This document shows, piece by piece, positions 23,176 to 41,804 of a stretch of DNA of 44,865 nt. This stretch comes from Nitrospirae bacterium JdFR-85 (GTDB taxonomy: Bacteria; Nitrospirota; Thermodesulfovibrionia; Thermodesulfovibrionales; JdFR-85), in NCBI GenBank assembly GCA_002011745.1, contig MTOU01000025.1:1-44865 (forward strand). Reading direction: 5' to 3'. The first letter of the stretch is position 1. Every line of letters starts with the position of its first letter. Position numbers and translations under genes: made by a program. The notes below the pieces were generated by a model. The model had not been told where the DNA came from and did not search any database. It saw nothing but the letters and a program-made list of their open reading frames with translations.

Positions 23176-23264
23176 TGGTGCCGGAGGCCGGACTCGAACC
23201 GGCACGGAGGCGAACCTCCGAGGGATTTTAAGTCCCTTGCGTCTACCAGTTCCGCCACTCCGGC
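23176..23264 (-). tRNA. tRNA-Leu (TAA anticodon)
   Basis: Reading the minus strand, the acceptor stem GCCGGAG pairs with CTCCGGC. The anticodon stem AGGGA/TCCCT closes CTTAAAA (anticodon TAA). A long variable arm CGGAGGTTCGCCTCCG identifies a class II tRNA. The T arm is GCCGGTTCGAGTCCGGC and CCA is encoded. Its 5' half (23225-23264) is the left copy of the 43-bp integration repeat, so the present 5' half and upstream promoter come with the element. Confidence 0.97.
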
Positions 23265-23267
23265 AAC
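23225..23267 (+). repeat. attL core: 43-bp repeat overlapping the tRNA-Leu 5' half
   Basis: Identical to 41762-41804. It begins ATTTTAAGTCCC in the anticodon arm and ends CGGCAAC just beyond the tRNA 5' end. The bases next to each end differ between copies (G versus A on the left, T versus A on the right), which sets the repeat limits. Confidence 0.93.
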
Positions 23268-23273: not shown

Positions 23274-23303
23274 ATTTTAAATGTTTTTCAGACATTCAGT
23301 CAA
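23274..23303 (-). promoter_or_regulatory. Element-borne promoter for tRNA-Leu
   Basis: On the minus strand, TTGACT (23298-23303) and TAAAAT (23274-23279) are 18 bp apart, and the tRNA starts 9 bp after the -10 box. This DNA lies outside the att core, inside the element, just beyond the integrase stop codon. The element therefore supplies the promoter of the tRNA it entered. Confidence 0.65.
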
Positions 23304-23307
23304 TGGC

Positions 23308-24318
23308 TTAGCCCTGTAAGGGTAGCAATATGGTAGCAGACTGATTGGAACTTTCAAGTCTCTCAATAGCCTTTCTTAGTGATTCGGGGTAGTGATGGGC
23401 ATACCGCATGGTCATAGTGATTGTCTTATGGCCAAGGAGTTCCTTTACCATGTAGATATCCACACCTGCCTGGACAAGTCTTGTAGCAAAGGTATGTCGC
23501 AGGTCGTGAAACCTGAAGTTTTCTATCTGAGCCCTCTTAACCGCCTTGTCAAAGGCACTTCTTACAGTCCAGGGTGATATGGGAAATACTTTACCGCTTA
23601 AGTCTCTCACCTTAAAACCCTTCAAGGTCTCATACAGGGTCGTTGATATGGGAATGATCCTCTTATTACCACCTTTGAGGGTCCTGACCGTTATCAGCCT
23701 CCTTTTCAGGTCTATGTCTTCCCATCTCAGATTAAGTATCTCACCTTTCCGCATACCCGTATGAAGGGCCACAATCAACAAAGGTCTTAACCACCATGGT
23801 CTGTCTGCTGCCTCAAGCAGCCTTTTTTCCTCTTCCAGAGTCAACCATCGGTCCCTTGCATTGCTATTGCCTACGGAGAAGGACAGCTTTGATACAGGAT
23901 TATCCTTGATCCATCCCCACTCTCGTATGGCAACATTGAACATCCGCCTCATAAGAGATAGTTCCTGATAAACTGTGGCAGGCTTAACTTTCTTAAGTCT
24001 GTCTGCCCGGTATTTAGCTATCAACTGAGGAGTAATTTCAGAGAGTCTGAGATGACCAAAGACAGGTAACAGGTATTTTATAGTTCTGGGGTCTCTCTGT
24101 CTCTGATAGCACTGCATGTACCGTTCTGCAAGGTCTTGGAAGGTATACTTCCTGGCTTTGGCCCTGTCAAAATACTCCCCCTCCAGAATTTCTGTGGTGA
24201 TTTTGTGGTATAATTTCTCAGCGAGCCGTTTGCTCTTCGTTTTCAAAGAACCCTGGTACCTTCGCCCTTGATGGGTGAAGGTGTAATACCAGATGCCTCT
24301 TTTTTGGTAAAGGCCCAT
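23308..24318 (-). CDS. int: Phage-type tyrosine integrase
   Basis: A 336-residue tyrosine recombinase. The N-terminal arm-binding region resembles GLYQKRGIWYYTFTHQGRRY, and a SAM-like core-binding domain follows (about 65-150). The catalytic residues are Arg in LHTGMRKGEIL, Lys in the following beta turn, HDLRHTFA, LGHKTI and the nucleophile Tyr in TMRYAHH. It acts on the 43-bp tRNA-Leu att sites. It is the last gene of a minus-strand operon starting at 27464 and directly abuts the excisionase gene. Two GGTAGCA repeats overlap its 3' end. Confidence 0.95.
   Translation of the reverse strand: MGLYQKRGIWYYTFTHQGRRYQGSLKTKSKRLAEKLYHKITTEILEGEYFDRAKARKYTFQDLAERYMQCYQRQRDPRTIKYLLPVFGHLRLSEITPQLIAKYRADRLKKVKPATVYQELSLMRRMFNVAIREWGWIKDNPVSKLSFSVGNSNARDRWLTLEEEKRLLEAADRPWWLRPLLIVALHTGMRKGEILNLRWEDIDLKRRLITVRTLKGGNKRIIPISTTLYETLKGFKVRDLSGKVFPISPWTVRSAFDKAVKRAQIENFRFHDLRHTFATRLVQAGVDIYMVKELLGHKTITMTMRYAHHYPESLRKAIERLESSNQSATILLPLQG
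23321..23338 (+). promoter_or_regulatory. Putative integrase arm-type sites, attL side
   Basis: GGTAGCA occurs at 23321-23327 and 23332-23338, starting 11 bp apart, 53 bp inside the attL core. Four more copies lie inside attR. The sites fall within the last codons of the integrase gene. Confidence 0.5.
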
Positions 24319-27301: not shown

Positions 27302-27464
27302 TCCTGCCCTCCTTCAAGAGTCTCTGAAGCTCTTCAACGGGAATATCCCATCGGCCTGTTAAAGGATGTTGAGAAGCCTTAATTCGCCCTTTTTTAAGGT
27401 AATTGTAGATAGTATTTGGATGAACCTCCAGTCGTCTCGCTGCTTCTCTTGCTGTCATCATCAC
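27276..27464 (-). CDS. Small HTH regulator A (MerR/excisionase-like)
   Basis: A 62-residue protein: AREAARRLEVHPNTIYNYLK, then KGRIKASQHPLTGRWDIPVE. The helix-turn-helix and short wing resemble AlpA/Xis proteins. It starts the seven-gene left-arm operon after GGGAGGTG and is divergent from the zinc-ribbon gene at 27605. A close paralogue is at 37778-37960 (shared YLK-x-GR-x-K, QHP, RW), in the same divergent arrangement. It is probably a transcriptional switch protein or origin-binding protein. Confidence 0.85.
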   Translation of the reverse strand: MMMTAREAARRLEVHPNTIYNYLKKGRIKASQHPLTGRWDIPVEELQRLLKEGRNDRKARHR

Positions 27465-27496
27465 ACCTCCCGTTTACAGTTTTAATAATCGTTAAT

Positions 27497-27526
27497 ATAA
27501 TATGGTGCAGATGGATAAATTGTCAA
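27497..27526 (-). promoter_or_regulatory. Promoter of the left-arm replication-integration operon
   Basis: On the minus strand TTGACA (27521-27526) and TATTAT (27497-27502) are 18 bp apart. The start codon of HTH regulator A is 33 bp past the -10 box. The HTH regulator B promoter has the same -35 and spacing. Confidence 0.7.
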
Positions 27527-27551
27527 AAATAAGGCATTTGTGTTAGTATGT

Positions 27552-27625
27552 AACTGTTAACAGAAACTTTATAATAAAAATGCCGTAAAATCAGGAATTT
27601 ATAAGTGAGCAAAAAACTGTTAACA
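27552..27625. promoter_or_regulatory. Two AACTGTTAACA operator-like sites
   Basis: The 11-mer AACTGTTAACA, centred on the palindrome TGTTAACA, occurs at 27552-27562 and 27615-27625, 63 bp (six helical turns) apart. A TATAAT at about 27570-27575 lies between them. The second site is within the first codons of the zinc-ribbon gene. The layout suits repression by DNA looping of the plus-strand gene. Confidence 0.5.
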
Positions 27626-28591: not shown

Positions 28592-28694
28592 TGGAAAGGA
28601 GGAAATAAACAGGACATCGAAAGAACATCCTTAAATCAGACAATACTTTTGAAATTAGGCCATTTCCCACCCCCCTTAACTATATGATCCTTAC

Positions 28695-29507
28695 TTATGA
28701 GGGCCAATCGGGTTTATTGAGACTAATAGAGAGAAGGATATTATACTCTCCTGTGTTATTGTTTCTTTCGTAAAGCCTCCACTCTCCCAGGTCGTATTCT
28801 CTTTTATATCTTCCATTTGGGGAGAATTCTTCTATTTTATTCAGCTTATCGGTCTTTGGTTTGAGGGGATAGGCGCTCTCGATTAAAAACATTTCGCTTC
28901 CCATAAAAGTATATAACTCTTTTGCAGTGTCATAAAGTTGTTTAATTATTTGCCAAAATTTGCTATCAATTTCTTTTAACAGGCCCCTCAAATTTTCTCT
29001 ATCCTCTTTAAGCGATTCTGAGGTTATTTCTTCTGCTACATTTATTTTCTCCTCTTGTAGAGAGTTGAAGAGTTCTTGATTAAGTAGTACAAAGGCCCTG
29101 AGTTTCATTTCAAAAGCATCTTTCCATTCTTTCAATTTCTCGGCTTCCTCAATTAAAGATGTTAAAGCTTTGCTGTCTTTAATCATTTCTTTAATCTCTT
29201 CAAGTAAATTCTTACACTTTCTGTACTTAACTTGAAAGCTCTCCAACGCTTCCAGTTGTTCAATCTCTGGCAAGGTTTTGTCTCTTAAAACCTCCAACTG
29301 ACTTTCCTTTACTCGTATCTCAGCCTCAACATCAGCAATCTTCTTTAACAGTTTCCATAAGCTCTGCTTTTTGCTTTCATCCCCTAAAGCTATCTTCTCA
29401 AGTAATTTAATTTTTTCTTCTTCAAACTCTTTCTTTTTGCTGTCTAATTCTTTAACTTCGGTTTTTAAAGACTCAATCTTTTCTCTTATTTCCGCTGCAC
29501 TTTTCAT
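28695..29507 (-). CDS. Coiled-coil protein of unknown function
   Basis: A 270-residue protein. Residues 1-110 are a strong coiled coil (SAAEIREKIESLKTEVKELD, EEEKIKLLEKI, VEAEIRVKESQLEVLRDK) and a second helical segment runs to about 200. The C-terminal 50 residues are mixed (FSPNGRYKREYDLGEWRLYE). The ATG follows AAGGAGGTGC. It has its own unit: a terminator lies just upstream. It may be a structural or scaffold protein, but nothing identifies its role. Confidence 0.75.
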   Translation of the reverse strand: MKSAAEIREKIESLKTEVKELDSKKKEFEEEKIKLLEKIALGDESKKQSLWKLLKKIADVEAEIRVKESQLEVLRDKTLPEIEQLEALESFQVKYRKCKNLLEEIKEMIKDSKALTSLIEEAEKLKEWKDAFEMKLRAFVLLNQELFNSLQEEKINVAEEITSESLKEDRENLRGLLKEIDSKFWQIIKQLYDTAKELYTFMGSEMFLIESAYPLKPKTDKLNKIEEFSPNGRYKREYDLGEWRLYERNNNTGEYNILLSISLNKPDWPS

Positions 29508-29537
29508 AACACCTTAGCACCTCCTTAAAAAGAGATA

Positions 29538-29560
29538 CCCCAGGCATCAAAAGCCTGGGG
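29538..29560 (-). terminator. Intrinsic terminator after the small HTH gene
   Basis: CCCCAGGC/GCCTGGGG forms an 8-bp stem with a 7-nt loop. On the minus strand it is followed by TATCTCTTTTT, a U-tract. It separates the HTH gene (29600-29830) from the coiled-coil gene. Confidence 0.75.
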
Positions 29561-29599
29561 CTAAGAGTTGAACCCACGGCATGGCAGCAAGAGGACAGC

Positions 29600-29830
29600 T
29601 TACTTATTCTTTTGAGCTCTAATTTCTGGCAGCAGTAAATAGCGAGCCACGCTTAAAAGATTATCGAGTTCGAGTTTGCCTCGATAAACCGCCATTCGCA
29701 CAGATGCAGGCTTTATTCCCCGTGCCTCGGCTATGTCTGCCACCGAATAACAGAATTTGCGAAAGAAGCGTCTCTTTGCAGGGTCAACACCTCTCAAAAA
29801 TCGTACTGATGGCTGATACCTCTTTGACAC
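29600..29830 (-). CDS. Small HTH DNA-binding protein
   Basis: A 76-residue protein with GTG start after GGAGGTG. It is basic at the N terminus (SKRYQPSVRFLRGVDPAKRR) and contains a helix-turn-helix, YSVADIAEARGIKPASVRMA. A 12-bp inverted repeat straddles the likely promoter, which suggests autoregulation. It may be a phage-type repressor or Cro-like regulator. It differs from the MerR/Xis-like HTH proteins elsewhere in the element. Confidence 0.75.
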   Translation of the reverse strand: MSKRYQPSVRFLRGVDPAKRRFFRKFCYSVADIAEARGIKPASVRMAVYRGKLELDNLLSVARYLLLPEIRAQKNK

Positions 29831-29859
29831 TTACACACCTCCTTATTCATCTGAGGAGT

Positions 29860-29896
29860 GTATCTTTTTGTTTTTAATATAGACACAAAAAGATAC
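29860..29896. promoter_or_regulatory. Operator-like 12-bp inverted repeat upstream of the small HTH gene
   Basis: GTATCTTTTTGT (29860-29871) and ACAAAAAGATAC (29885-29896) are perfect inverted copies separated by 13 bp. The spacer contains TATATT on the minus strand, a fair -10 box, 30-50 bp before the GTG. Binding of a dimer would block that promoter. Confidence 0.55.
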
Positions 29897-29976
29897 ATCA
29901 CATGAAACCATACATCTTTGTGCATAATATATATATCTATAGCTATACTGTGAACTTTTTGTTGTTATATAAAACA

Positions 29977-30056
29977 GATGCGTCATCTTTGAAAACACGG
30001 TTTTGAATGATGTCGTTTGGCCGTAGTTATGTGGCAAAAGTTTTGTATGACGCATC
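29977..30056. other. Possible structured RNA or DNA site in a 425-bp gene-free stretch
   Basis: GATGCGTCAT (29977-29986) and ATGACGCATC (30047-30056) form a 10-bp outer stem. The 60 bp between them hold AAAAC-ACG-GTTTT and GCCGTA-GTTA-TGTGGC hairpins, so a three-way junction is possible. The rest of 29831-30255 has only the operator described separately, C/G runs near 30065-30106 and AT-rich sequence. No credible gene was seen. Confidence 0.4.
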
Positions 30057-30255
30057 CTTTAATGCCCCCCACGAGGGGGTATATTAAGATGGAAAGTAAG
30101 GGGGGTAATCCCTTGTAAAATAACGATTTTTTAATTGCATGTCCGTTAATCCTGCATTGCGGACATAGAGAATACCCACTCTTGACCCCTTCTGAAAGCT
30201 ATAATTCATAAAAAACATATTTAAATTTTGAAAAAAAAGAGCGTAAAACGCATCA

Positions 30256-30825
30256 TCACTTTTTAATTTTAAAATAATCTTTGATCAATGCCTCTAATTC
30301 GATTTTCATTGCTTTGATAGCTTCTTCTTTTGTCGAAGGTCTAATCTTCAAAAAGACGACATCTTTTCCTGTCCATTCACCATAAGTCTTTCTCTCAAAC
30401 CTCTCCGCAGGGATAAAAATTTTCTTGCCTTTAAATTCAAAGGAGTCTGGGATCTTAATTGTGACTCCTCGGGAGTCAATGTAAACGCTGTCTTCCAATT
30501 TTCGCAAAAACTTGCTCTTTCGAGGCCATTTACCTTCCAATCTCACTTTCGCAGCTTCAGCGGTTGCCTCAACCATGAGTGATTCTACTGTTGAACCTGT
30601 AAAGTATCCAGGTACGGGAGGCAGCCCCAATGCTTCTTTTAATCGTTGCCAGGAAGAGTTAGGGTTGACGGATTTTTCAAACTCCTCGTTATAATGCTCA
30701 AAGACGTCGGATTTAACGGCTTCACCTGCTTTTGAATGCAACTCTCTCTTTTGTTTATCGATACGAGCTATGAAGCCTATCAGCTCTTTTGCAAGTCGGT
30801 CGAGGTCAGCTTTAATTTTCAACAT
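30256..30825 (-). CDS. Putative minor virion protein (HK97 gp10-like or tail-completion type)
   Basis: A 189-residue protein following the tape measure gene. The start at 30825 (MLKIKADLDRLAKELIGF) was chosen for AGGAAGGG upstream; ATG 30843 overlaps the tape measure stop. N-terminal helices are followed by WQRLKEALGLPPVPGYFTGS and a C-terminal mixed region. Helix, then a conserved 'G-x-L..S' turn, then a beta region resembles gp10/tail-completion proteins that join tail to head. The similarity is weak, so the call rests mostly on position. Confidence 0.45.
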   Translation of the reverse strand: MLKIKADLDRLAKELIGFIARIDKQKRELHSKAGEAVKSDVFEHYNEEFEKSVNPNSSWQRLKEALGLPPVPGYFTGSTVESLMVEATAEAAKVRLEGKWPRKSKFLRKLEDSVYIDSRGVTIKIPDSFEFKGKKIFIPAERFERKTYGEWTGKDVVFLKIRPSTKEEAIKAMKIELEALIKDYFKIKK

Positions 30826-30835
30826 GATGCCCTTC

Positions 30836-33800
30836 CTACCCATAAGCTACTGCCTCCTTCAGGGCCTGTCTTGCTTTTCCGTACTTAATTGAGTAAACGA
30901 TTGCGTCTTCTACTTCTCTTCTTATTGCTTGCAGGTCAGCTCCTCTGTCAGCAACAATTGTAATCTGTGGTGAAATGGTAACGTTTTGAGTTAAAGCTTT
31001 CATTTTACTTGCAGGGATGACGTATTCAGGTTCTCTTTCACCAATCAGGGCAAGAGTAGGTTTCGTAACGTATCCACCAGTAGCAAAAGCAACAGCAAAT
31101 GGAGACCCTCTACGGGCAAGTGGTGAACCCAAATCCAAAATCTCGCCCCAAACTTTTTCTAACAACTTTCTTATCTGAGCCAGCTCCGTAACTGCTGCAA
31201 GCTGTAAGTCTGCGAGGTACTGTTCTACTGTTTTATCTCCGAGCAACTCTGTCAATCTTTGTTTTAATTCGTCAATTTTAGCTTCGTAGAGTTTAACTCC
31301 TACGTTCTTCAACCATTCGTAATATGCTGCTGCCTGTTGTTTGACAGCCTCTATTTCAGCCTGCATCTGTGCTGTATAATCAATCTGTATCTTTGACAGA
31401 CGATTTGCTTCTTCCTGAAGGTTCTTAATCTGTCTTTGAAGTTCTTCCTCAGTCACTGCATAAGTTGAAGCATCTTCTTTAATAAGAGTCAACATATTAA
31501 TCATCTCGTCGTAGATAGCTTTATATTCAGGGGAAGGTCTCTGAAAAGCTTCCTGTGCAACTTTAAGGTAATCCTGTATCAGAGTATGGAGTTTTCCAGC
31601 ATATTCAAGTCTTTGCTCTCCTGTAGCTCCTGTATAGAGAGCATACATTCTTGCTACCTGTTCTCTTGCATATGCAAGTCTTTCAAAGATGTCTCTTGGG
31701 TTAGCAGTGCCAATAATAAGGTTTCTAAGGGTGGTTTCAATTCTATCAAGCAGACTCTTCCATTGCTGAGCAAGTCTAAGTTGTTCTTGAAGTGCTCTTG
31801 TCTGTTCCTGAATAGCTTCCTGCTGCATCTGAATTCTTCTTCTCTCAGCTTCAGCAAGTCTTTGATACCTCTGTTGTATAGCAGATATCTGACTGCTTAC
31901 CCATTGGTCAACCGTTCCAACAGCTTCATTTACCCATCCAAGGAGTTTGTTTATCTGAGTTACTGACATACCAGTTTGGATTAAAGCATCAATAGCACCA
32001 GAAATAGCATTCATCATCTGTTCAAGACTCATATCCATAGTCACAATAGCATTTTGTATTTGTGCTGTCTTGTTAGCTGTAAATTCAACCAGTTCGGAAA
32101 TTGCTCCACCTACAATTCCAAACATGTCTAAGAACTTCATTGATATAACATTTTCAACATTTTCTAATGTTTGAACTGTTCTAATTGCCATAACATTTCC
32201 CAGGTCCTCAGCCATCTTTTCAAGAATGTATCTGAACTTTTCCATCATTATTTCTGCTGCATCTCCTACTCCAGTCATTTCTGCTATTTTTTGTTCAAGA
32301 TTAAATCTGAAATCCATTAGTTCCATTTCAGCCTGTCTGATACTTGCCACCAGTCCCTCTATCATTTGTTTTTCTGCCATGTACTTCTCGTATATAGCCT
32401 GCTTTAGCTGATTAGCATAGTTGATAGCGTCTGAAGGGTCTGTTGCGTTTTTGAGAGACTCTTTAAGGTCTTCAATCTGTTTTTGAGCTTCCATCATCTG
32501 TTCTTTCCATTTTGCTATTTCATCGTATTGTTCTCTGATTGCAGCAATGTAATCGTCGAATGATGCAAGCACTTTGGGATAATCCTTAATTGCCTGGACA
32601 ATTCTTAAAATAGTCTGTGTAAGGTTTTCTCCGCCTTTCTGGAACTGACTAAAATCTATACCTGTAAGAAGCTCAACTATGTCTTTAAGACCTTTACCAA
32701 ATTCCTGTAGTATTTCCTCCCACGTCATGTCTTTCTTTACTTCAAAGTATATTTCCTTGCTGCTGTCTCTAAGTTCTTTTAATTTGTCCATTGAAACATT
32801 GAAAGTATCAACAACAGAATCCATAACGTTCTCAAATATCTTAAGCAGTTGTTCTGCTGCTTTCCTTGCTTCCTCGCCCATAAACGTCTTATACTTCACG
32901 CCGAGATAACCAACCCCTGCGTAAGGTTCTGTCAATATGCTCCAGTGTTTTCCTGGTTCAGTTGTAGGATACAGTCCTGCTGCAAAAGCTGGTACCTTTT
33001 TTGAACCAAACAGACTGCCCAACAGACCACCAAGCAGTCCTCCAGCAGCCATACCAAGAGGACCAAGCCATGAACCAGCAGCCATCCCAGCAGCAATAGA
33101 ACCACCACCAGCCACAGCATAACCAATTCCCATTCCCAGCATACTGCCCAATGCCCCACCTATTCCACTGTATTTGCCTCCAAATAGTTGTCCTAAACCA
33201 TAACCAAGCAACCCTGCTCCTAAGAATGGAAATATAGCCCCAGCTCCAAGAGAAGGAGTCATGGTGCCATAATAAGCTTCAAGAGCCCCCACAGCAGTAG
33301 CAGGAGTAGGATAAGTTACAACAGGAAGCCCAAAGTAAGATGTTGTAGCATAACTGATAGGTTTAAAACCTCCAGCCCAGGACATGGAAACACCTGGTAC
33401 ACCGCCTCCCATGCCCATACTCATTGGCGCAGGTGGAGTGGGCATACCCATAATATTTCCTATCGTTACAAGGATGGGTACTGTTATGGGGTTGGATGCG
33501 AGAACAGCCATTTGAGCTAAGTAGTTTGCAAACATTTTTAAGATATTTTTCCACACTCTATCAAAATAGTCGCCAAGATCCTTCAGTTTGCCTGTGATAG
33601 TATCATAGAACAAATCTGAGAAGCTCTCAGCAATGCTTTTGTGCGTTTTCGAAGAGACATCACGCCAGAATTCGTAAGTGGTTTTAATACGGTTTGCAAA
33701 TTCTCTCAGACCATCCTTAATACCCTCAAACATTGAGCCAGAAAGCGTTTTTTGGGCTTTCTCCATATCAAGCATGAGAGACGTATAAAGGGCTTTTAGT

Positions 33801-36370
33801 CTTTCGAGATCCTTCTTAATAAGCTCAACATCTTCTCCTGTGATTTTGGATAGCCGTAGATCCTCTTCTCTCTGCTTGATGTATCTCGCAAGTTTTTCAA
33901 GTTCTTTCTTATAGATTTCAATTTGATAAGCTAAAGCCGTTCTCCTGTCGAATTGCTTTTCTGCGATTTTCTTATAAGTTTTTAGTGTGGATATCTCAAC
34001 TGCCGTCAGCCACGCCTGTTTTTGTGCCTCAGAAAGTCTTTCAATAAGAGGGATGAGAGTTTTGTACTTTTTCTTAGCTTCTTCTGCGGTTTTCTGGATA
34101 CCGATAAGCTCCATTGAAACTGCATCGTGAGTGAGTTTCATCAGTTGCTTCTTATAGTTTTTTTCAGCTTTGAATTTTTGATAAGCATACTGGAGTGAGT
34201 CTTTATACCCTGTCAACTCGTTTTTTCGTATTAACTCACTAATCTGAGCAAACTCCTTTACTTCCAGTAGAAGCATTTTTTGTGTCAGCCTTCTAATTTC
34301 CTGTTCTCGTATCTTTGCCTCGTCTTCCTTTAATGTATCCATTCCTTTCTTAAGTTCCTCAATCTGCTTCCTCAAAACTTCTCTCTGAATCGCAAACTCT
34401 TTTTGTATCTTTGTGGCTTCTTCAGCTAAACTTTTCTCTCTTAAATAGCTCCTCTGTTTATAATAATCCTCAAGACTGATTCTGCCCATCTTTAGCTGAC
34501 TATCCAATAAAGCAAAACTCTTTTGAATCTCCACTTGAACATCTTTCCATGCCTCAGAAACAGATATGGTTGATATTTGTGCCGTGTTTGAGATGGCATC
34601 TAAAACCCTTCTATATTCTTTTGTATTCTCAACCGCTTCCTTTGGAATCCCCAATCCTTTCAGTATCTCTTCTGTCTTTCTGTCCTTGCCACCAGAAAAC
34701 TTAAGGCGGTTAAACAGAACATCCTGGATTGTGATTACTTCTTTAGCTGCCCTGTCAAGACTTCCTGCGAGAGCTTCTGAAGCTTTTTCAAAATGGTGTA
34801 TGGCTACTTTAGGTATCCGCTTGATTTCTTCCCATGCTTTTTTAAAGTTGCCCGTTACCAGATACATCAAGGAAGCAATAACTCTCTCCAAAGGGTTGGT
34901 GATCAGCCTGACTGTATGATATAGCCACTTGAAACCATCGACCGTAAGACTCAAAAGACCTGCAACGCCTGAGAGGACAAACCCTAAGACCTTAAAAGCA
35001 CCAATTAAGAGCTTCAAACCATCCTTGAGAAGTTGAGAGTTGCTGAAGGCAGCCCTTAGCTCTCTGGTGAGACTTTTGAAAATTCGCCATTGCCCTGAAA
35101 GTGTGTCTGTCATGACCTCTGAGGTTCTTGCGAGGGCTCCTTGGGAGTTCTGGATTGCATTGAGTATGGTATGGTAGGTTTCGAGTTCTCTGATTAAGGC
35201 AATGAGAGCAGAACGCCTTTGTACAGGAGCTATACCTCTCAAGAAAGACATGGCTTCTAAGGTCATGCCAAGCTCTCCTGAGCCTAATGCCTTTCTCAGT
35301 CCATTAATAATAGCTTCAAACTGCTCTGCTATTGTCTTGCTTTTATCGAGAACGATGCCTATCTTTTCAAGTTCTTTGATACCTTTAGGAGTACTCAAAG
35401 AGTCAATCAGACCACGCAAAGCCCTCGCAGCAGGTCCAGCCTTGGCACCCAGATTTGTAATGATAACGCTGAGTGCAAGCATCTGATCAATTGTAAAGCC
35501 TGCTGCCTGAGCCATCTGCCCCAGATGCTGAATTACGAGATTGATGTCTTTTGGTGCAATGACTCCAACGGCCAGAGCCTTTGTGATTTTGTCAAGAATT
35601 GCTCTAAATCTCTCTGCATCGTTCTCAAATTCTCGTAACCCAGGAGTGTGTCTAAACGTGTTGAGAAAACCGACAATTGCGGTTGTAAATTTTTCAGGGT
35701 CAATCTCAGGGAAGGCGACCTGTAGTTTTGCGAAGTCTTCGAGAGAGGCTTTGACGGTTTCTATGTTGATACCTGCTGCCAGCAATCGGTCTGAAGCTTT
35801 GATGACTTCTTCAAAAGCTATAGGTAGGTTGATTGCGATCTGACGGCTGTATTTAACTAACTCCTCTGCCGTGCGTCTGTGTATTCCTCGGACATTTTCT
35901 TCCATCGCAGCATACCTGAGCAACAGTGCCTCAGCCCTGTCAATCTCTGCTTCAAACTCAATACCTTCACGCAATGCCCTTGCTGAACCAAAAACGATAG
36001 ACCGCCCTAAATACCATCGCAACTGAAAGTTCATAAGAGTCATTGCGTCTTTGAGAACATCTCTGATACCCCAACGCAAGTTAACAAAGGACTCTCTCGC
36101 CTTCTCAACCTCAGTCCTGATTTTTGTAAATCCTTTCTCAGTGGTTGTAGCTAACTCCTTAGTGTTTGTTACAACTTGCTTTACGTCTTTCTCAATCCGT
36201 TTTACAGATTTAGATAGTGCCTCTGCTTGCTTTACAACGGATTTATCAAAAGCTATGATTTTCGACTTTTCAACAGTTTCAAAAGTCTTCTGTATGGTTC
36301 TGAGGAATCGTCTGATTTCCCTTTCAGCCTCTCGTGTGCTTGCTGTAATCTGGATTTGTAGGTTTGGCAT
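30836..36370 (-). CDS. Phage tail tape measure protein
   Basis: An 1844-residue protein. The N terminus has the TIGR01760-like core (FEAEIDRAEALLLRYAAMEE, then AFEEVIKASDRLLAAGI). Long coiled coils lie at about 600-900 and 1330-1700. A Gly/Ala-rich hydrophobic segment (about 1080-1180, for example GSMLGMGIGYAVAGGGSIAA) separates them. Near the C terminus is FATGGYVTKPTLALIGEREP, a common tape-measure tail motif. Such proteins set siphovirus or myovirus tail length. At roughly 0.15 nm per helical residue this one predicts a very long tail (about 250-280 nm). No major tail tube, assembly chaperones, baseplate or tip genes accompany it. Confidence 0.93.
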   Translation of the reverse strand: MPNLQIQITASTREAEREIRRFLRTIQKTFETVEKSKIIAFDKSVVKQAEALSKSVKRIEKDVKQVVTNTKELATTTEKGFTKIRTEVEKARESFVNLRWGIRDVLKDAMTLMNFQLRWYLGRSIVFGSARALREGIEFEAEIDRAEALLLRYAAMEENVRGIHRRTAEELVKYSRQIAINLPIAFEEVIKASDRLLAAGINIETVKASLEDFAKLQVAFPEIDPEKFTTAIVGFLNTFRHTPGLREFENDAERFRAILDKITKALAVGVIAPKDINLVIQHLGQMAQAAGFTIDQMLALSVIITNLGAKAGPAARALRGLIDSLSTPKGIKELEKIGIVLDKSKTIAEQFEAIINGLRKALGSGELGMTLEAMSFLRGIAPVQRRSALIALIRELETYHTILNAIQNSQGALARTSEVMTDTLSGQWRIFKSLTRELRAAFSNSQLLKDGLKLLIGAFKVLGFVLSGVAGLLSLTVDGFKWLYHTVRLITNPLERVIASLMYLVTGNFKKAWEEIKRIPKVAIHHFEKASEALAGSLDRAAKEVITIQDVLFNRLKFSGGKDRKTEEILKGLGIPKEAVENTKEYRRVLDAISNTAQISTISVSEAWKDVQVEIQKSFALLDSQLKMGRISLEDYYKQRSYLREKSLAEEATKIQKEFAIQREVLRKQIEELKKGMDTLKEDEAKIREQEIRRLTQKMLLLEVKEFAQISELIRKNELTGYKDSLQYAYQKFKAEKNYKKQLMKLTHDAVSMELIGIQKTAEEAKKKYKTLIPLIERLSEAQKQAWLTAVEISTLKTYKKIAEKQFDRRTALAYQIEIYKKELEKLARYIKQREEDLRLSKITGEDVELIKKDLERLKALYTSLMLDMEKAQKTLSGSMFEGIKDGLREFANRIKTTYEFWRDVSSKTHKSIAESFSDLFYDTITGKLKDLGDYFDRVWKNILKMFANYLAQMAVLASNPITVPILVTIGNIMGMPTPPAPMSMGMGGGVPGVSMSWAGGFKPISYATTSYFGLPVVTYPTPATAVGALEAYYGTMTPSLGAGAIFPFLGAGLLGYGLGQLFGGKYSGIGGALGSMLGMGIGYAVAGGGSIAAGMAAGSWLGPLGMAAGGLLGGLLGSLFGSKKVPAFAAGLYPTTEPGKHWSILTEPYAGVGYLGVKYKTFMGEEARKAAEQLLKIFENVMDSVVDTFNVSMDKLKELRDSSKEIYFEVKKDMTWEEILQEFGKGLKDIVELLTGIDFSQFQKGGENLTQTILRIVQAIKDYPKVLASFDDYIAAIREQYDEIAKWKEQMMEAQKQIEDLKESLKNATDPSDAINYANQLKQAIYEKYMAEKQMIEGLVASIRQAEMELMDFRFNLEQKIAEMTGVGDAAEIMMEKFRYILEKMAEDLGNVMAIRTVQTLENVENVISMKFLDMFGIVGGAISELVEFTANKTAQIQNAIVTMDMSLEQMMNAISGAIDALIQTGMSVTQINKLLGWVNEAVGTVDQWVSSQISAIQQRYQRLAEAERRRIQMQQEAIQEQTRALQEQLRLAQQWKSLLDRIETTLRNLIIGTANPRDIFERLAYAREQVARMYALYTGATGEQRLEYAGKLHTLIQDYLKVAQEAFQRPSPEYKAIYDEMINMLTLIKEDASTYAVTEEELQRQIKNLQEEANRLSKIQIDYTAQMQAEIEAVKQQAAAYYEWLKNVGVKLYEAKIDELKQRLTELLGDKTVEQYLADLQLAAVTELAQIRKLLEKVWGEILDLGSPLARRGSPFAVAFATGGYVTKPTLALIGEREPEYVIPASKMKALTQNVTISPQITIVADRGADLQAIRREVEDAIVYSIKYGKARQALKEAVAYG

Positions 36371-36450
36371 AGCTCTGCAACCTCCTGTAATAAAACATCT
36401 CTAAGCACTTCTCATATACAATGCTGTAAAGCGTCCACTCATTTAACTTT

Positions 36451-36528
36451 TTGTGTAATAACCTGTTGAAAATAAAAAGAAAAGCTAAGTGTATATGTCC
36501 ACTACTTAGCCAGTTGGTATTTACACAA
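36451..36528. promoter_or_regulatory. Nested inverted repeats upstream of the tape measure gene
   Basis: The outer arms TTGTGTAATAACC (36451-36463) and GGTATTTACACAA (36516-36528) pair with two mismatches. The inner arms GCTAAGT (36484-36490) and ACTTAGC (36504-36510) are perfect. The 288-bp gap between the tape measure gene and zinc-ribbon B contains no gene. The site could be an operator, a structured leader or a replication signal. Confidence 0.45.
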
Positions 36529-36549
36529 TCATCACCTCGTTTGGATATG

Positions 36550-36585
36550 GTTGCAATCCCTTCTATTTGAGGTCTTCGTTTCTAT
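36550..36585 (-). repeat. Solitary CRISPR-repeat-like sequence (single copy)
   Basis: On the minus strand this 36-nt stretch starts ATAGAAACGAAGACC and ends GAAGGGATTGCAAC, similar in length and ending to many type I/III CRISPR repeats. Only one copy is present and there is no array, so it is a weak call. Solitary repeat units are known in some mobile elements. Confidence 0.2.
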
Positions 36586-36658
36586 GGCTCAAGTATCGAT
36601 GGAGTTATTTTGAAGAGTTAAGAGAGATTGAAGAAATGGTTTTTTCTGGTTTTGGCTA

Positions 36659-37633
36659 TTATTCTTCTAAATAATCTACAAACTCTGGTGGGAGCAAGTC
36701 TTTTTTTATTCTTTTAAAGGCTATACCTCGTTGTCTGTATATAGGCTCGGCTTTTACAGGAGCTTTAGTTTTTTTATCAAATATCAATTCAACTTTTTTC
36801 TTCTCTCCTTTGATTTCAACGATTGCATATGTTTTTTTAATCTCTTTTATTACTGCTTCTTTTCCAGATAAAGGAACCTTCTGCCCTATAAATTTCCTTT
36901 TATGAAAGTGAAGCACCCTACAGGAAGGAGAATGATACTTCTGTTTTGGTTTACTTGCAAGAAAAACCTCATCGCAAAAAATACATTTCTTGGGAATAGC
37001 TCCATTTAAAATATCTATAATCGCTTTTTCTATAGTTGTACGAGGCTGTAAGGGTGTAAAATCTTTTTTAATATATTTCAGTTTCTGTAAATATTTAAAG
37101 ATCTGTTTGTCTGAAATTTCACGTTTGGAGGAATAATACATTTTGTAATGAGATATTAATTCTGTTAAAGTATCTTCAATCTCTTTATTTGTTTCAGCAC
37201 GTGTTATTGCCTGTATAATGTTCTTTTTTAAATCCACCTGTACATGTTGTCTTATCCATTCTTCTGTCCACCCTAACTGAAAGGCAAGTATTTTATAGAG
37301 AAGATTACATAGTATTCCAATATCATTATAGGGAGATGTTTTAAAACTCTTTTTTATATTATAAATATCCCTAAAAACATTAATAATTTTTATTTCTTCA
37401 TTAGAAAATTTATATTCAACAATAACTTTTTCATTGGCTGCTTTAACAAGAGATTTTTCAAGCAGACTTGGATTACAGACCAACCACATTTTAACATAAT
37501 TTTTTATTAAATTGAGATGCTCTTCTTCTTTAATATGTTTAAAAATACTTAAGGGACTGTCTGAAAGAATTATTTCTTCTGTAAGTTCTCCCTTTTTAAA
37601 TAGTTCTTCATAACTCAACTTTTTCGTAGACAT
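36659..37633 (-). CDS. Zinc-ribbon protein B, paralogue of the protein at 27605
   Basis: A 324-residue protein. The start at 37633 (MSTKKLSYEELFKKGEL) lines up with MSKKLL of the first copy; an ATG at 37651 is possible. The C-terminal third has CIFCDEVFLASKPKQKYHSP, then SCRVLHFHKRK, matching the KPKQ(K/R)Y and SCRVL pattern of protein A, with His for one Cys. It extends about 75 residues past that motif. It is more AT-rich and Lys-rich than copy A, so the duplication is old or the copies came separately. It is divergent from HTH regulator B. Confidence 0.8.
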   Translation of the reverse strand: MSTKKLSYEELFKKGELTEEIILSDSPLSIFKHIKEEEHLNLIKNYVKMWLVCNPSLLEKSLVKAANEKVIVEYKFSNEEIKIINVFRDIYNIKKSFKTSPYNDIGILCNLLYKILAFQLGWTEEWIRQHVQVDLKKNIIQAITRAETNKEIEDTLTELISHYKMYYSSKREISDKQIFKYLQKLKYIKKDFTPLQPRTTIEKAIIDILNGAIPKKCIFCDEVFLASKPKQKYHSPSCRVLHFHKRKFIGQKVPLSGKEAVIKEIKKTYAIVEIKGEKKKVELIFDKKTKAPVKAEPIYRQRGIAFKRIKKDLLPPEFVDYLEE

Positions 37634-37714
37634 GAATCTATTATTACACATTCTTTAACCTTTTTTCATAAACTTGTTTTGTTTTTAAATTTTAAATGCT
37701 TTAAATTTTTAACC

Positions 37715-37744
37715 TTGACAAATGTTAATATTTTATCTTATAAT
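37715..37744 (+). promoter_or_regulatory. Consensus promoter of HTH regulator B
   Basis: TTGACA (37715-37720) and TATAAT (37739-37744) are both perfect consensus, 18 bp apart. AAAGGAGG lies 8 bp before the ATG at 37778. This is the strongest promoter recognised in the window and probably reads the right-arm genes up to about 40750. Confidence 0.85.
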
Positions 37745-37777
37745 ATGTATAACAAAATGATAAAAGGAGGTATTAAT

Positions 37778-37960
37778 ATGAAACAATACATAACCGTTTC
37801 AGAAACAGCAAAACAACTTGATCTCAGTCACACTACCATTCTTACCTACCTGAAGCAAGGCAGACTCAAAGGGAAACAACATCCCTTCAACAATCGCTGG
37901 ATGGTTGATAAAGGCTCAGTTGAACGATTCAAGAAGGAGAGACTTTCTCTCAAAAAGTAA
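37778..37960 (+). CDS. Small HTH regulator B (paralogue of regulator A)
   Basis: A 60-residue protein: TVSETAKQLDLSHTTILTYL, then KQGRLKGKQHPFNNRWMVDK. It shares YLK-x-GR-x-K, QHP and RW with regulator A at 27276-27464 and has the same divergent zinc-ribbon neighbour. It probably opens the right-arm transcription unit and regulates it, or marks a site for replication or excision. Confidence 0.87.
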   Translation: MKQYITVSETAKQLDLSHTTILTYLKQGRLKGKQHPFNNRWMVDKGSVERFKKERLSLKK

Positions 37961-37983
37961 TAGCAAGACAGGAGGTTTTAGAG

Positions 37984-38196
37984 ATGGCCAGAATCCTTAA
38001 TATCTCTTATCCTCAAGAAGAAATCTACCATCAGGAGAATGAAGACTTTGAGAAACGGTCTGACTTTAATTCAGATGAACATCATAATAAGGAGTGGCAG
38101 GAACTCTTGAAGAAACTCGATAACCCAACAGACGAGGATGAAGACTATCTTCATGAGAAAAAGAAATGGGAGGAACTCTTAAAAGAATTGGAGTAA
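37984..38196 (+). CDS. Small acidic protein of unknown function
   Basis: A 70-residue, strongly acidic protein (ARILNISYPQEEIYHQENED and repeated WQELLKKL / WEELLKEL units, about residues 38-46 and 61-69). The two related helices could be a duplicated binding motif. ATG follows CAGGAGG. An acidic, DNA-mimic or antirepressor-like role is possible but unproven. Confidence 0.65.
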   Translation: MARILNISYPQEEIYHQENEDFEKRSDFNSDEHHNKEWQELLKKLDNPTDEDEDYLHEKKKWEELLKELE

Positions 38197-38220
38197 TAAC
38201 AGATTTATTGTGATCAGGTT

Positions 38221-38280
38221 GAGGCATGGCGAGGCGAGGCGGGGCATGACGTGGCGAGGCGTGGCAAGGCTGGGCATGGC
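38221..38280 (+). repeat. GC-rich pentanucleotide tandem repeat
   Basis: Twelve 5-bp units of the form NNGGC (one is ATGAC): GAGGC, ATGGC, GAGGC, GAGGC, GGGGC, ATGAC, GTGGC and so on. It is very G-rich against the AT-rich surroundings and lies in the 156-bp gap before the S24-like gene. Confidence 0.85.
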
Positions 38281-38294
38281 AGAATTTGTAAGAT

Positions 38295-38313
38295 ACCCTG
38301 GTTTTACCAGGGT
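38295..38313 (+). terminator. Terminator-like hairpin
   Basis: ACCCTGGT (38295-38302) pairs with ACCAGGGT (38306-38313) around TTT, followed by GCTTTTG. It would end or attenuate the transcript from the HTH B promoter after the acidic protein gene. Confidence 0.6.
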
Positions 38314-38352
38314 GCTTTTGTAACTTTTATAAATAAACAAAGGAGGTTAAAA

Positions 38353-38652
38353 ATGTCCGCTACCAAAGGTTTCTTTGTCAAAGCAAGAGGAAAACTTATG
38401 ACAGGGAATGTTAAAGGGCAAAGAATTAAAAGAGGAGATTTATTCTTTGTTGAACCTGACGAACCAATCCAAAACGGTTGTTTCGCACTGTTCAACGCCT
38501 CTAAAGGCACAACGGTTGCAAGAGTCTGGATTAATGACGATACAGTAATTCTTGATCCGATAAACAATGAAGTGGAACCTGAAATCTTGAAAAAAGAGGA
38601 ACTGAGTAGATTGAATCTTTGTAAAATTACGGCAGTTGCGATAAATCTTTAA
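38353..38652 (+). CDS. LexA/CI-like S24 peptidase fold, catalytically dead and without HTH
   Basis: A 99-residue protein after AAGGAGG (ATG 38353; the longer frame from 38251 runs through the pentanucleotide repeat). The order FFVKARGKLM, RGDLFFVEPDEPIQNG, GTTVARVW and DDTVILDPINNEVEPE follows the LexA/UmuD/CI C-terminal domain. In active members the first motif has Ser (GxSM) and the third has Lys (TVKR); here they are Leu and Ala. It also lacks the N-terminal HTH, so it cannot be a normal self-cleaving repressor. It may bind a repressor or RecA as a decoy. Confidence 0.7.
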   Translation: MSATKGFFVKARGKLMTGNVKGQRIKRGDLFFVEPDEPIQNGCFALFNASKGTTVARVWINDDTVILDPINNEVEPEILKKEELSRLNLCKITAVAINL

Positions 38653-38669
38653 TTAAAAGGAGGCAAAAA

Positions 38670-39170
38670 GTGAGCATTGCTTTAGAAAAGTTTAAAGGAA
38701 TGAGAGTAATACATTCTGAAGAAAGTTTTGAAGGCAAAAAAGGGTTTGTATTAGAAGACGAGAAAGGAACTCGTTATTTTTATGACGAGGAAAGCCAAAA
38801 ATATTATACCTTAAAAGAGATGGAGCCTGAGACTTTCGGAAAACTTGTCTCAGAGTTTCCAGATTGTGCCATGGAGATGGGCATAGAACCTGAAGAAGTA
38901 TTGTGGACGGCTGTTAAATTATTAGCTGAAAGATACTCTAAAGTTTTTCACCCTTTTATTATCTGGTGTCATTGGGTAAAAAGAGATTCCCTTACATGGA
39001 AGAAATTTGTTAACCGATTTAATACTGACAAGCCTAATTTGCTATGGATGGATACAATTGTAGAGAGCTACAAAGAGGTCACTAAGTTTGCTAAAGAATT
39101 CGTTCATCCTAAAGAAGTATACGATTTTCTGGATTTTTGTATAAAGCAATACGAAAAGTTGGAGGCGTGA
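38670..39170 (+). CDS. Conserved-looking protein of unknown function
   Basis: A 166-residue protein with GTG start after AAAAGGAGG. An N-terminal strand-rich piece (MRVIHSEESFEGKKGFVLED, EKGTRYFYDEESQKYYTL) resembles a small beta domain. The helical C-terminal half contains FHPFIIWCHWVKRDSLTWKK and VHPKEVYDFLDFCIKQYE. No family is recognised. It overlaps the excisionase-like gene by one base (TGATG). Confidence 0.65.
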   Translation: MSIALEKFKGMRVIHSEESFEGKKGFVLEDEKGTRYFYDEESQKYYTLKEMEPETFGKLVSEFPDCAMEMGIEPEEVLWTAVKLLAERYSKVFHPFIIWCHWVKRDSLTWKKFVNRFNTDKPNLLWMDTIVESYKEVTKFAKEFVHPKEVYDFLDFCIKQYEKLEA

Positions 39171-39373
39171 TGCAAGAAAGATTGTTGACACCTAAAGAGG
39201 TAGCACAAAGACTGAATGTATCTATCATGTCTATTCACAGATGGGTTAAAAGCAATCAGATTCCTTATGTAAGGCTGTCATCGAGAATTGTGAGATTCAG
39301 TGAACAGGAATTAAATAAGTGGTTAAAAGAGAGGTCCATACCAGCACTGCGTAGACCTTCAGTAAGGAGGTAA
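39170..39373 (+). CDS. Excisionase-like HTH protein, right arm
   Basis: A 67-residue AlpA/MerR-type protein (LTPKEVAQRLNVSIMSIHRW, IPYVRLSSRIVRFSEQELNK). ATG at 39170 follows GGAGG and overlaps the previous stop. It resembles the Xis at 24318-24548 and lies directly upstream of the second tyrosine recombinase, so the two probably form a second excision pair. Confidence 0.85.
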   Translation: MQERLLTPKEVAQRLNVSIMSIHRWVKSNQIPYVRLSSRIVRFSEQELNKWLKERSIPALRRPSVRR

Positions 39374-39456
39374 ATTAAGAAGAATAAGGAAGATAGCAAG
39401 AGAAAACATGTTTACTTTTCCATAAACTTACAAAAACAAAAAAGGAGGGTTAACCC

Positions 39457-40401
39457 ATGGCAATGGCAGGAGAGTTAATACCAACCACTACAACTTATCC
39501 TTTTATCAACATTGAGTTGTATGTTGATGAATTTCTTCATTCTTTGGATGTTAGGGATTCGTCTAAAGAAACGTATAGAAAAGGGCTTATAAATCTCATG
39601 AGATGGCTAAACCTACAAAGCATATTTCAACCCTCCAGAGAAGATATTATAAGCTATAAGAAATACCTTCTAAATGACAAACGGCTATCTCCTCTTACAG
39701 TTACAGCCTACCTAACAGGAATCAGAAAATTTTTTGAATGGACAGAGCACAAAAGGATATATCCTAATATAGCTCAAGATGTAAAGAGTCCTAAAAGAAG
39801 TAAAGGATTCAGAAGGGATCCACTCACAATAAATCAGATAAAAAGAGTCCTTGATTGTATTAACAGAGATGTTCTTGAAGGCAAAAGAGATTATGCTTTA
39901 CTTAACCTTATGCTCAGGACAGGGTTAAGAACAATTGAGGTTGTAAGGACAAATGTGGGAGATATATCTCAAGCAGGTGGAGAAGCAGTACTTAGAATAC
40001 ATGGTAAAGGCAAGGATACTAAGGATGACTTTGTTCTTTTAACAGAGGAGACTTTAAAGCCTCTCTATGACTACCTTCAGGCTTTAAAAGAAGAGAAGTT
40101 TAATGTGAGTGATGATGCTCCTCTATTTGTATCTCTAAGTGACAGAAACAGAGGGCAGAGACTTACCACACGATCAGTAAGAAGGATCGTTAAAGAAAGG
40201 CTCAGAGGTACAGGGATAGACAGTCCCAGACTTTCAGCCCATAGCCTCAGACATACCTTTGCTACCTTAGCTCTTGCTAATGGTGCCCCTGTAATTCAGG
40301 TAAAGGAGGCTTTGAGACATAAGAGTATTGAAACTACCACCATCTATGCCCATGCAATAGACAGAATAACAAATGGTGCTGAGAGATATATAAGGTTCTA
40401 A
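39457..40401 (+). CDS. Second tyrosine recombinase (XerC/D-like)
   Basis: A 314-residue recombinase. A SAM-like domain (about 20-105) precedes catalytic residues: Arg in MLRTGLRTIEVV, Lys near IHGKGKDTKDD, SAHSLRHTFATLA, RHKSIETT and Tyr in TIYAHAIDR. It is closer to Xer/transposon-type recombinases than to the phage-type int at 23308. It may resolve multimers, move a second element now fused to the first, or invert DNA. No second att pair was found. Confidence 0.93.
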   Translation: MAMAGELIPTTTTYPFINIELYVDEFLHSLDVRDSSKETYRKGLINLMRWLNLQSIFQPSREDIISYKKYLLNDKRLSPLTVTAYLTGIRKFFEWTEHKRIYPNIAQDVKSPKRSKGFRRDPLTINQIKRVLDCINRDVLEGKRDYALLNLMLRTGLRTIEVVRTNVGDISQAGGEAVLRIHGKGKDTKDDFVLLTEETLKPLYDYLQALKEEKFNVSDDAPLFVSLSDRNRGQRLTTRSVRRIVKERLRGTGIDSPRLSAHSLRHTFATLALANGAPVIQVKEALRHKSIETTTIYAHAIDRITNGAERYIRF

Positions 40402-40445
40402 AGTCCCTTTGGGACTTGTATAAATTATGATTAGGAGGATTAAAT

Positions 40446-40748
40446 ATGTCAAACATCGATGTTCATAAAATAGGAGATGCGATGTATTATTTACAAAATT
40501 CCATTGGCTATCTTAATGTGCTTAAAACATTCTTATCTCTACAACGGGATGATCGATATCATGAATACAGTGAATGCCTTAGACATATAATGGCAAAAGG
40601 AAATAATGGAGACAAAGAAGAAGATGATGAAGAAGAGATAAGACAACTACTCTTTGAATATCATACAGAACAGATCATCGAAGAGGAAATGGTAGAACGG
40701 GCTCATCATTATGCTACTCTGGCATATAAATCACTTGAAAAATGTTAA
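40446..40748 (+). CDS. Small acidic helical protein of unknown function
   Basis: A 100-residue protein after TAGGAGG (SNIDVHKIGDAMYYLQNSIG), with a Glu/Asp run in the middle (GDKEEDDEEEIRQLLFEYHT) and a C-terminal helix containing HHYATLAYKSLEKC. It is likely the last gene of the right-arm unit. A Shine-Dalgarno at 40761-40767 followed by ATG 40775 reads only five codons, perhaps the start of a deleted gene. Confidence 0.55.
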   Translation: MSNIDVHKIGDAMYYLQNSIGYLNVLKTFLSLQRDDRYHEYSECLRHIMAKGNNGDKEEDDEEEIRQLLFEYHTEQIIEEEMVERAHHYATLAYKSLEKC

Positions 40749-40816
40749 GTATTAAAGTTCAAGGAGGGCTGAAGATGGTTACCATGTATTGAGTGTCTGG
40801 CAATTAACAAAGTGGT

Positions 40817-40846
40817 GAAGGAGGCAGCCCCTTATTTGCCTCCTTC
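40817..40846. terminator. Hairpin between convergent units
   Basis: GAAGGAGGCA (40817-40826) is perfectly inverted as TGCCTCCTTC (40837-40846) with a 10-nt loop. It overlaps the stop of the minus-strand gene at 40832 and could end transcription from both sides, though the T-runs are short. Confidence 0.5.
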
Positions 40847-41035
40847 TTTGCCATACCGTTTGCTATACTGTTTACTTTCACTTTCAGGATACAGTTCCCC
40901 ATACTGTATACCATACTGTTTAAGATACTGTTCAGGTATCTTTTTAATGATTTCTCTTTTTAAATCAATAAGATAGCGTTTATTGAGCTCCTCAATTACC
41001 TTTACTAAAATGTCTTTTGATACACACCTTCTCAA
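40832..41035 (-). CDS. Small protein with QYxx tetrapeptide repeats, third gene of the TA unit
   Basis: A 67-residue frame from TTG 41035. The N-terminal half is KDILVKVIEELNKRYLID. The C-terminal half is a period-4 repeat: QYLK QYGI QYGE LYPE SESK, then QYSK RYGK. At DNA level ATACTGT-like units start exactly 12 bp apart (40853, 40865, 40889, 40901, 40913, 40925). The frame begins 9 bp after the toxin stop. No function is known. The weak start and lack of a clear Shine-Dalgarno leave some doubt. Confidence 0.5.
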   Translation of the reverse strand: MRRCVSKDILVKVIEELNKRYLIDLKREIIKKIPEQYLKQYGIQYGELYPESESKQYSKRYGKEGGK

Positions 41036-41043
41036 TCAAAATT

Positions 41044-41325
41044 CTACCCAAATAAGTCTGAATGAGTACCCGTTCTTTCAAAAATAATCAAACCTTTGTC
41101 TCTGTCAATCTTGTATATTAGTAACCAGTCAGGCTCAATGTGACATTCTCTGTGGTCTTTATATTTATATTTACCTTTTAAAGGATGGTCTCTGTATTTT
41201 GGGTCAAGAGCCTTACCCTCACTTAAGGCCCTCATCACCTTTTTAAGTTTTTCAATGTCCTTACCTCTTTTTATTGCCTTCTGAAAGTCCTTTTCAAACC
41301 GATTGGTAGTAACTGTTTTGTACAC
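41044..41325 (-). CDS. YafQ-type mRNA-cleaving toxin (RelE superfamily)
   Basis: A 93-residue toxin. KDHRECHIEPDWLLIYKID and LIIFERTGTHSDLFG match YafQ closely, including the catalytic His residues and the terminal GTHxxLFG. YafQ cuts mRNA on the ribosome when its antitoxin is lost. It directly follows its antitoxin gene and lies near attR, so it probably stabilises the element in the host. Confidence 0.9.
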   Translation of the reverse strand: MYKTVTTNRFEKDFQKAIKRGKDIEKLKKVMRALSEGKALDPKYRDHPLKGKYKYKDHRECHIEPDWLLIYKIDRDKGLIIFERTGTHSDLFG

Positions 41326-41544
41326 TTATACTCCCATTTTCTTAAAGAACTCATCAAGACTGTCATAATAGTTTAACTCCTCACCTCTGTCTGCCTTCTC
41401 AAGAGTCTCTCTGGTTGCTCTGTTAGGTTCTTTCATCTTCTCCTCTATTACTTCGTCCACAACCTCTCTTATCAGCTCCCTTAGTTCTGCCACGGTTAAT
41501 TCTGAAACCCTGATCTTGTCTTTTATGGATGTTGTTTCTGCCAT
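41326..41544 (-). CDS. Antitoxin partner of the YafQ-type toxin
   Basis: A 72-residue acidic protein, AETTSIKDKIRVSELTVAEL, then ELIREVVDEVIEEKMKEPN and a C-terminal YYDSLDEFFKKMGV. It resembles RelB/Phd-linked small antitoxins rather than DinJ. It lies immediately before the toxin, with no gap, after GGAG. It probably represses its own promoter. Confidence 0.8.
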   Translation of the reverse strand: MAETTSIKDKIRVSELTVAELRELIREVVDEVIEEKMKEPNRATRETLEKADRGEELNYYDSLDEFFKKMGV

Positions 41545-41602
41545 CTCTGTACTCCTTTTTGAATGGTTTTGTTGATATTTTATCTTATTCCACCTGATTT
41601 AG

Positions 41603-41641
41603 GGTAGCAATAGGGTAGCAAAATGGTAGCAGAAGGTAGCA
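41603..41641 (+). promoter_or_regulatory. Four phased GGTAGCA repeats, putative integrase arm sites (attR side)
   Basis: GGTAGCA starts at 41603, 41614, 41625 and 41635, 11, 11 and 10 bp apart, all in the same orientation as the two copies next to attL. They lie in the 404-bp gene-free stretch between the antitoxin and the next gene, which also holds attR. Confidence 0.6.
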
Positions 41642-41761
41642 CACTAAACAGAAAATATGGGAAAGAACAGAAATAATGGAACTACTAAAAAGTCTTTAAA
41701 ATCAATTGGTTATGCTTAAACCCAGTCCAGGAGTGCCTTTTAAGGAAAGTGCGAGATTAGA

Positions 41762-41804
41762 ATTTTAAGTCCCTTGCGTCTACCAGTTCCGCCACTCCGG
41801 CAAC
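41762..41804 (+). repeat. attR core: duplicated 5' half of tRNA-Leu
   Basis: A perfect copy of 23225-23267. It ends with CGGCAAC and is followed by host DNA. It is only the 5' part of the tRNA, so it is not a functional tRNA gene. A 15-mer shared with the xis-int junction lies 22 bp to its left (41725-41739). Confidence 0.93.

What the first reader, a model, noticed from the sequence alone, without database searches (positions are those of the whole stretch)
38353..38652. Stand-alone LexA/CI-type fold with Ser and Lys catalytic residues lost
The motif order matches LexA/UmuD C-terminal domains, but the usual GxSM Ser position reads GKLM and the TVKR Lys reads TVAR. There is also no DNA-binding domain. 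Such a dead S24 module could be a decoy that pairs with host LexA or a phage repressor, linking element induction to SOS or to a helper.
Basis: partly seen in the sequence, partly recalled or inferred. Interest (0 to 1): 0.65.

Follow-up and report, generated by a model that had tools for sequence, protein, structure and literature searches.

The report
Dead LexA-fold protein in mobile element
A small gene in an 18.6-kb integrated mobile element encodes only the core fold of the LexA/phage-repressor protease, with both catalytic residues and the DNA-binding part missing; it probably acts by binding other proteins, and the host has no detectable LexA for it to act on.

Summary
Window 38353-38652 (+) is a real 99-aa gene (ribosome-binding site; codon bias in frame). 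Pfam Peptidase_S24 matches at 5e-8, and an AlphaFold model (pLDDT 89) aligns with LexA, UmuD' and lambda CI C-terminal domains (Z 10.5-11). Ser reads Leu15 and Lys reads Ala56; the Ala-Gly cleavage segment and any DNA-binding domain are absent. Nearly all of 80 related viral domains keep both residues. The gene lies in an 18.6-kb element inserted at tRNA-Leu (43-bp repeats, integrase), heading a run of genes with an excisionase-like HTH and a Xer-like recombinase. The host-LexA decoy idea is not supported: the genome shows no LexA, no other S24 repressor and no Y-family polymerase, although a congener has LexA. No stand-alone orthologue was found in the collections searched. The closest relatives are XRE regulators of the same order that also lost both residues. 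Precedents are phage 186 CI, whose isolated non-catalytic C-terminal domain is dominant negative, and SipA. Most likely it is a non-proteolytic interaction module in the element's own control or excision circuit; a decoy for another element's repressor remains possible. New variant of a known kind; moderate interest.

The parts
38353..38652 (+). 99-aa stand-alone S24-fold protein with catalytic Ser and Lys lost
38395..38397 (+). codon of Leu15, at the position of the nucleophilic Ser (E. coli LexA Ser119)
   Evidence: alignment
38518..38520 (+). codon of Ala56, at the position of the general-base Lys (E. coli LexA Lys156)
   Evidence: alignment
38341..38346 (+). ribosome-binding site of the S24 gene
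   Evidence: sequence
38294..38314 (+). terminator-like hairpin directly upstream of the S24 gene
   Evidence: two such sites found, 2.1 expected by chance, so weak alone
38218..38282 (+). array of GGCNN pentamers, possible protein-binding or leader element
37715..37744 (+). perfect sigma-70 promoter match TTGACA-18-TATAAT
37769..37960 (+). HTH_17 (excisionase-like) gene upstream; exact start not settled
37984..38196 (+). 70-aa acidic protein, unknown
38670..39170 (+). 166-aa protein, 17 bp after the S24 gene; weak AbiJ_NTD4 resemblance below cut-off; no relatives found
39167..39373 (+). HTH_17/AlpA-like protein, overlaps the end of the 166-aa gene
39457..40401 (+). Xer-like tyrosine recombinase
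40446..40748 (+). 100-aa protein, unknown
23225..23267 (.). attachment site, 43-bp direct repeat covering the 5' half of tRNA-Leu
41762..41804 (.). attachment site, second copy of the 43-bp repeat
23308..24318 (-). phage-type integrase of the element

Best explanation
Shown: the gene encodes a minimal LexA/CI/UmuD'-type S24 core that lacks the Ser-Lys dyad and so should not cut itself or another protein by that mechanism, on an 18.6-kb element integrated at tRNA-Leu. Inferred: it is a protein-protein interaction (dimer or oligomer) module that belongs to the element's own control or excision circuit. It is the first of five closely spaced genes that include an excisionase-like HTH protein and a Xer-like recombinase, so its likeliest partners are element proteins (itself, the 166-aa protein or the HTH_17 proteins) rather than host LexA. 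It would work as the C-terminal domain of phage 186 CI works, by assembly without proteolysis.
For: S24 fold. Catalytic loss. Intact coding gene. Element bounds and integrase. Gene neighbourhood. No host LexA, other S24 repressor or Y-family polymerase. Precedents: 186 CI has an S24 fold without a canonical active site (PMC12984324) and is matched at Z 7.7-7.9; SipA, a dead signal peptidase of the same superfamily, works without catalysis (PMC4049620).
Against: No partner was identified and no complex was predicted. A terminator-like hairpin parts it from the upstream HTH_17 gene, so co-expression with that gene is uncertain. No orthologue shows that the neighbourhood is conserved. The related phage-like locus in G038 has no such gene among the ORFs listed.
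Confidence: 0.4

Rival explanations
1. Dominant-negative decoy: it forms mixed dimers with the S24 C-terminal domain of a repressor from a helper, competing or superinfecting element, blocking DNA binding and thus inducing or mistiming that element.
For: Expressing the isolated C-terminal domain of 186 CI sequesters the repressor and induces the prophage (PMC7708051). The protein is just such an isolated domain. Its closest relatives are domains of full-length XRE regulators.
Against: No other S24 repressor is detected in this genome; identity to any known S24 domain is only about 20-33%, so pairing with a given repressor cannot be assumed.
Confidence: 0.25
2. RecA- or polymerase-linked module like UmuD' or phage P1 HumD: a pre-shortened S24 core that binds RecA filaments or a translesion polymerase.
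For: UmuD' is among the best fold matches (Z 10.7), and UmuD and LexA cores bound to RecA are also matched (8gmt, 8gms). It lacks the N-terminal arm as UmuD' does.
Against: No Y-family polymerase over cut-off in the genome. The cleavage segment that contacts the RecA core is absent (role: PMC3834820). UmuD family score far below cut-off.
Confidence: 0.12
3. Relic: a truncated, decaying repressor C-terminal domain without function.
For: Both catalytic residues and the DNA-binding domain are gone; one relative, L072, looks like a decayed fragment without a proper start.
Against: Intact frame with a good ribosome-binding site, in-frame codon bias, a confidently predicted full fold, close spacing to the next genes; no HTH remnant upstream.
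Confidence: 0.15

Closest known systems
Dead-S24 XRE regulators of the same order (L065-L068, L070, L071, L073; e.g. G025 L067)
   Same: S24 fold with both Ser and Lys replaced; highest pairwise score to the query (L067: 125, Z 24.9 against shuffles)
   Different: They carry an N-terminal HTH_3 domain and several stand next to a DUF6847-type gene; the query has no HTH and lies on an integrated element
Phage 186 CI repressor C-terminal domain (2FKD, 2FJR)
   Same: S24-type fold without canonical catalytic residues, non-proteolytic role
   Different: 186 CI is fused to a DNA-binding domain; fold match is weaker (Z 7.7-7.9, about 10% identity) and kinship is not shown
LexA / lambda CI C-terminal domain (Peptidase S24, PF00717)
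   Same: Fold and motif order
   Different: No Ser-Lys dyad, no Ala-Gly cleavage site, no DNA-binding domain
UmuD' and phage P1 HumD
   Same: Stand-alone S24 core without DNA-binding domain (UmuD' Z 10.7; HumD from general knowledge)
   Different: Catalytic residues lost; no Y-family polymerase in the genome
SipA of Streptococcus pyogenes
   Same: Same superfamily, catalytic Ser and Lys replaced, non-enzymatic function
   Different: Signal-peptidase (S26) branch at the cell surface, Z 7.7 and 8% identity

Membership tests
Peptidase S24 (PF00717) | S24 sequence profile and fold | tested here: met
   (5.3e-8)
Peptidase S24 (PF00717) | catalytic Ser-Lys dyad | tested here: not met
   Leu15 and Ala56 at these positions
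LexA/CI repressor | N-terminal DNA-binding domain | tested here: not met
   99-aa protein starts at the first strand of the core
LexA/CI repressor | Ala-Gly (or Cys-Gly) cleavage site N-terminal to the core | tested here: not met
   sequence
UmuD'/HumD polymerase manager | Y-family polymerase partner in the same genome | tested here: not met
   none over the cut-off
186 CI-type non-proteolytic S24 domain | S24 fold with defunct active site | tested here: met
186 CI-type non-proteolytic S24 domain | oligomerisation of the isolated domain | not testable with these tools
   no complex prediction or biochemistry available
Dead-S24 XRE regulators of this order | N-terminal HTH_3 domain | tested here: not met
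Dead-S24 XRE regulators of this order | common descent with loss of both residues | tested here: inconclusive
   grouped at 97/90 with all columns; without the catalytic columns it pairs with active L090 at 99/88 and AU tests do not decide

The most novel reading that the evidence does not exclude
A mobile element that lives in a host without detectable LexA carries a dedicated, proteolysis-dead, DNA-binding-free S24 core as a regulator: either a separate assembly subunit of a split repressor or a naturally evolved dominant negative against other elements' S24 repressors.
Probability: 0.3. Interest if true: 0.65.

Novelty: new variant of a known kind. Interest (0 to 1): 0.4.

Why it matters
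A dominant-negative S24 domain has been made in the laboratory (186 CI C-terminal domain); a natural stand-alone one on a mobile element would give a protease-free way to control or sabotage lysogeny. The host's apparent lack of LexA also bears on how elements in Thermodesulfovibrionales sense when to leave.

Tried and rejected
Host-LexA decoy: not supported, no LexA found; the gene next to LexA in G001 is also not found in G000, so an assembly gap and a deletion covering both cannot be told apart. UmuD'-type manager: no Y-family polymerase. Remnant of a fused repressor: no HTH upstream. Orthologue searches that gave nothing close: viral contigs, genome contigs (one search gave two dead XRE regulators), plasmids, 396 genomes of the phylum, phages (only CI-type repressors). 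phrog_8558 proved a general LexA/CI profile. Neighbour genes had no relatives in viral contigs or phages. Alignment A3 was too diverse to scan with. Single-sequence AlphaFold was unusable. BFVD holds a few short S24-fold models (A0A516L0G7 104 aa, A0A2I6TCF5 91 aa, A0A8S5P675 94 aa) whose sequences I could not read, so stand-alone viral S24 proteins may exist that I could not compare. The viral survey is biased, since one search pattern contained the Ser position. Rfam and PADLOC: nothing. The empty site in a congener was not examined.

Full report
Observation. Window 38353-38652 (+) encodes 99 aa with a good ribosome-binding site and in-frame codon bias. Pfam assigns Peptidase_S24 at 5.3e-8, above its curated cut-off. 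A solved-structure sequence search aligns it, weakly, with LexA C-terminal domains. With a 34-row alignment built from loci fetched by the search for related loci, AlphaFold2 gives pLDDT 89 and pTM 0.78; Foldseek and VIA-align place it with LexA, UmuD' and lambda CI C-terminal domains. Most rows of that alignment are S24 domains, so the model leans on them; the independent Pfam match makes the fold safe.

Catalytic residues. Leu15 stands at the Ser position and Ala56 at the Lys position. Of 80 viral S24 domains, 79 keep Ser, and all 79 that reach the Lys position keep Lys; the remaining one is a cut-off fragment. One search pattern included the Ser position, so the Ser count is biased upward. 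The exception for Ser, the repressor of phage C7Cdelta, reads GEKM with the Lys kept. Loss of both is therefore unusual among viral repressors, but not unique: a group of full-length XRE regulators in the same order also lacks both.

Kinship. The best pairwise score is to one of these dead regulators (L067, 125, Z 24.9 against shuffles). A tree on all columns joins the query to that group at 97/90. When the catalytic columns are dropped it pairs instead with an S24 regulator that keeps the dyad (L090, 99/88), and AU tests do not decide. Whether the loss was inherited or independent is open.

Surroundings. A 43-bp direct repeat at 23225-23267 and 41762-41804 covers the 5' half of tRNA-Leu, with an integrase beside the first copy: an 18.6-kb integrated element. 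It carries a tape-measure protein, a DnaG-type zinc-finger primase fragment and a phage helicase/primase-like protein. GGTAGCA repeats at about 11-bp spacing lie near both ends, as expected of integrase arm sites (inference). The S24 gene is followed at short distance by the 166-aa gene, an HTH_17/AlpA-like gene, a Xer-like recombinase and a 100-aa gene. Upstream lie a terminator-like hairpin, a GGCNN pentamer array, an HTH_17 gene and a perfect sigma-70 promoter match.

Partners. The own genome shows no other S24 repressor (the second hit, L031, reads as a signal-peptidase-like protein), no LexA DNA-binding domain over cut-off and no Y-family polymerase over cut-off. The congener G001 has an intact LexA; the gene beside it there is not found in G000 either, so deletion and assembly gap both remain possible. 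A host-LexA decoy is thus not supported.

Mechanism. Two precedents show what a dead protease of this superfamily can do: phage 186 CI, whose S24 fold lacks a canonical active site (PMC12984324) and whose isolated C-terminal domain acts as a dominant negative that induces the prophage (PMC7708051), and SipA, a dead signal peptidase needed for pilus polymerisation (PMC4049620). I therefore infer a non-proteolytic interaction module, most likely in the element's own circuit because of its gene neighbours (0.4), with a decoy against another element's repressor as the main rival (0.25), a RecA- or polymerase-linked role (0.12) and a functionless relic (0.15) behind. Fold and loss of the catalytic residues are shown; partner and effect are inference.

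Novelty. The fold and the loss of catalysis are known separately; a stand-alone, DNA-binding-free, dead S24 core on a mobile element is a new variant of a known kind as far as these searches reach. Short viral S24-fold models exist in BFVD that I could not read, so it may have company.

Noticed in passing
window 23225-41804: 18.6-kb integrated element at tRNA-Leu with integrase, tape-measure protein and primase-like genes; no capsid or terminase gene appeared among the proteins scanned.
   Followed up: partly
window 38218-38282: Tandem array of GGCNN pentamers upstream of the S24 gene; 11 matches to the pattern in the window against about 1 expected.
   Followed up: partly
window 41047-41553: Two adjacent reverse-strand ORFs near the right end resemble a RelE/YafQ-type toxin with its antitoxin by eye; not scanned.
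   Followed up: no
L065, L066, L068, L070, L071: Dead-S24 XRE regulators stand divergently to a conserved gene; the two copies scanned match DUF6847.
   Followed up: partly
L101 8112-19988 (G038:C29): Related phage-like locus in another family of the order, with similar tape-measure, 211-aa, coiled-coil and zinc-finger proteins.
   Followed up: partly
whole genome G000: No LexA and no Y-family polymerase detected although a congener has LexA.
   Followed up: partly
L097 1087-1764: Paenibacillus phage C7Cdelta repressor has GEKM in place of GxSM, so its Ser is lost while the Lys is kept.
   Followed up: no
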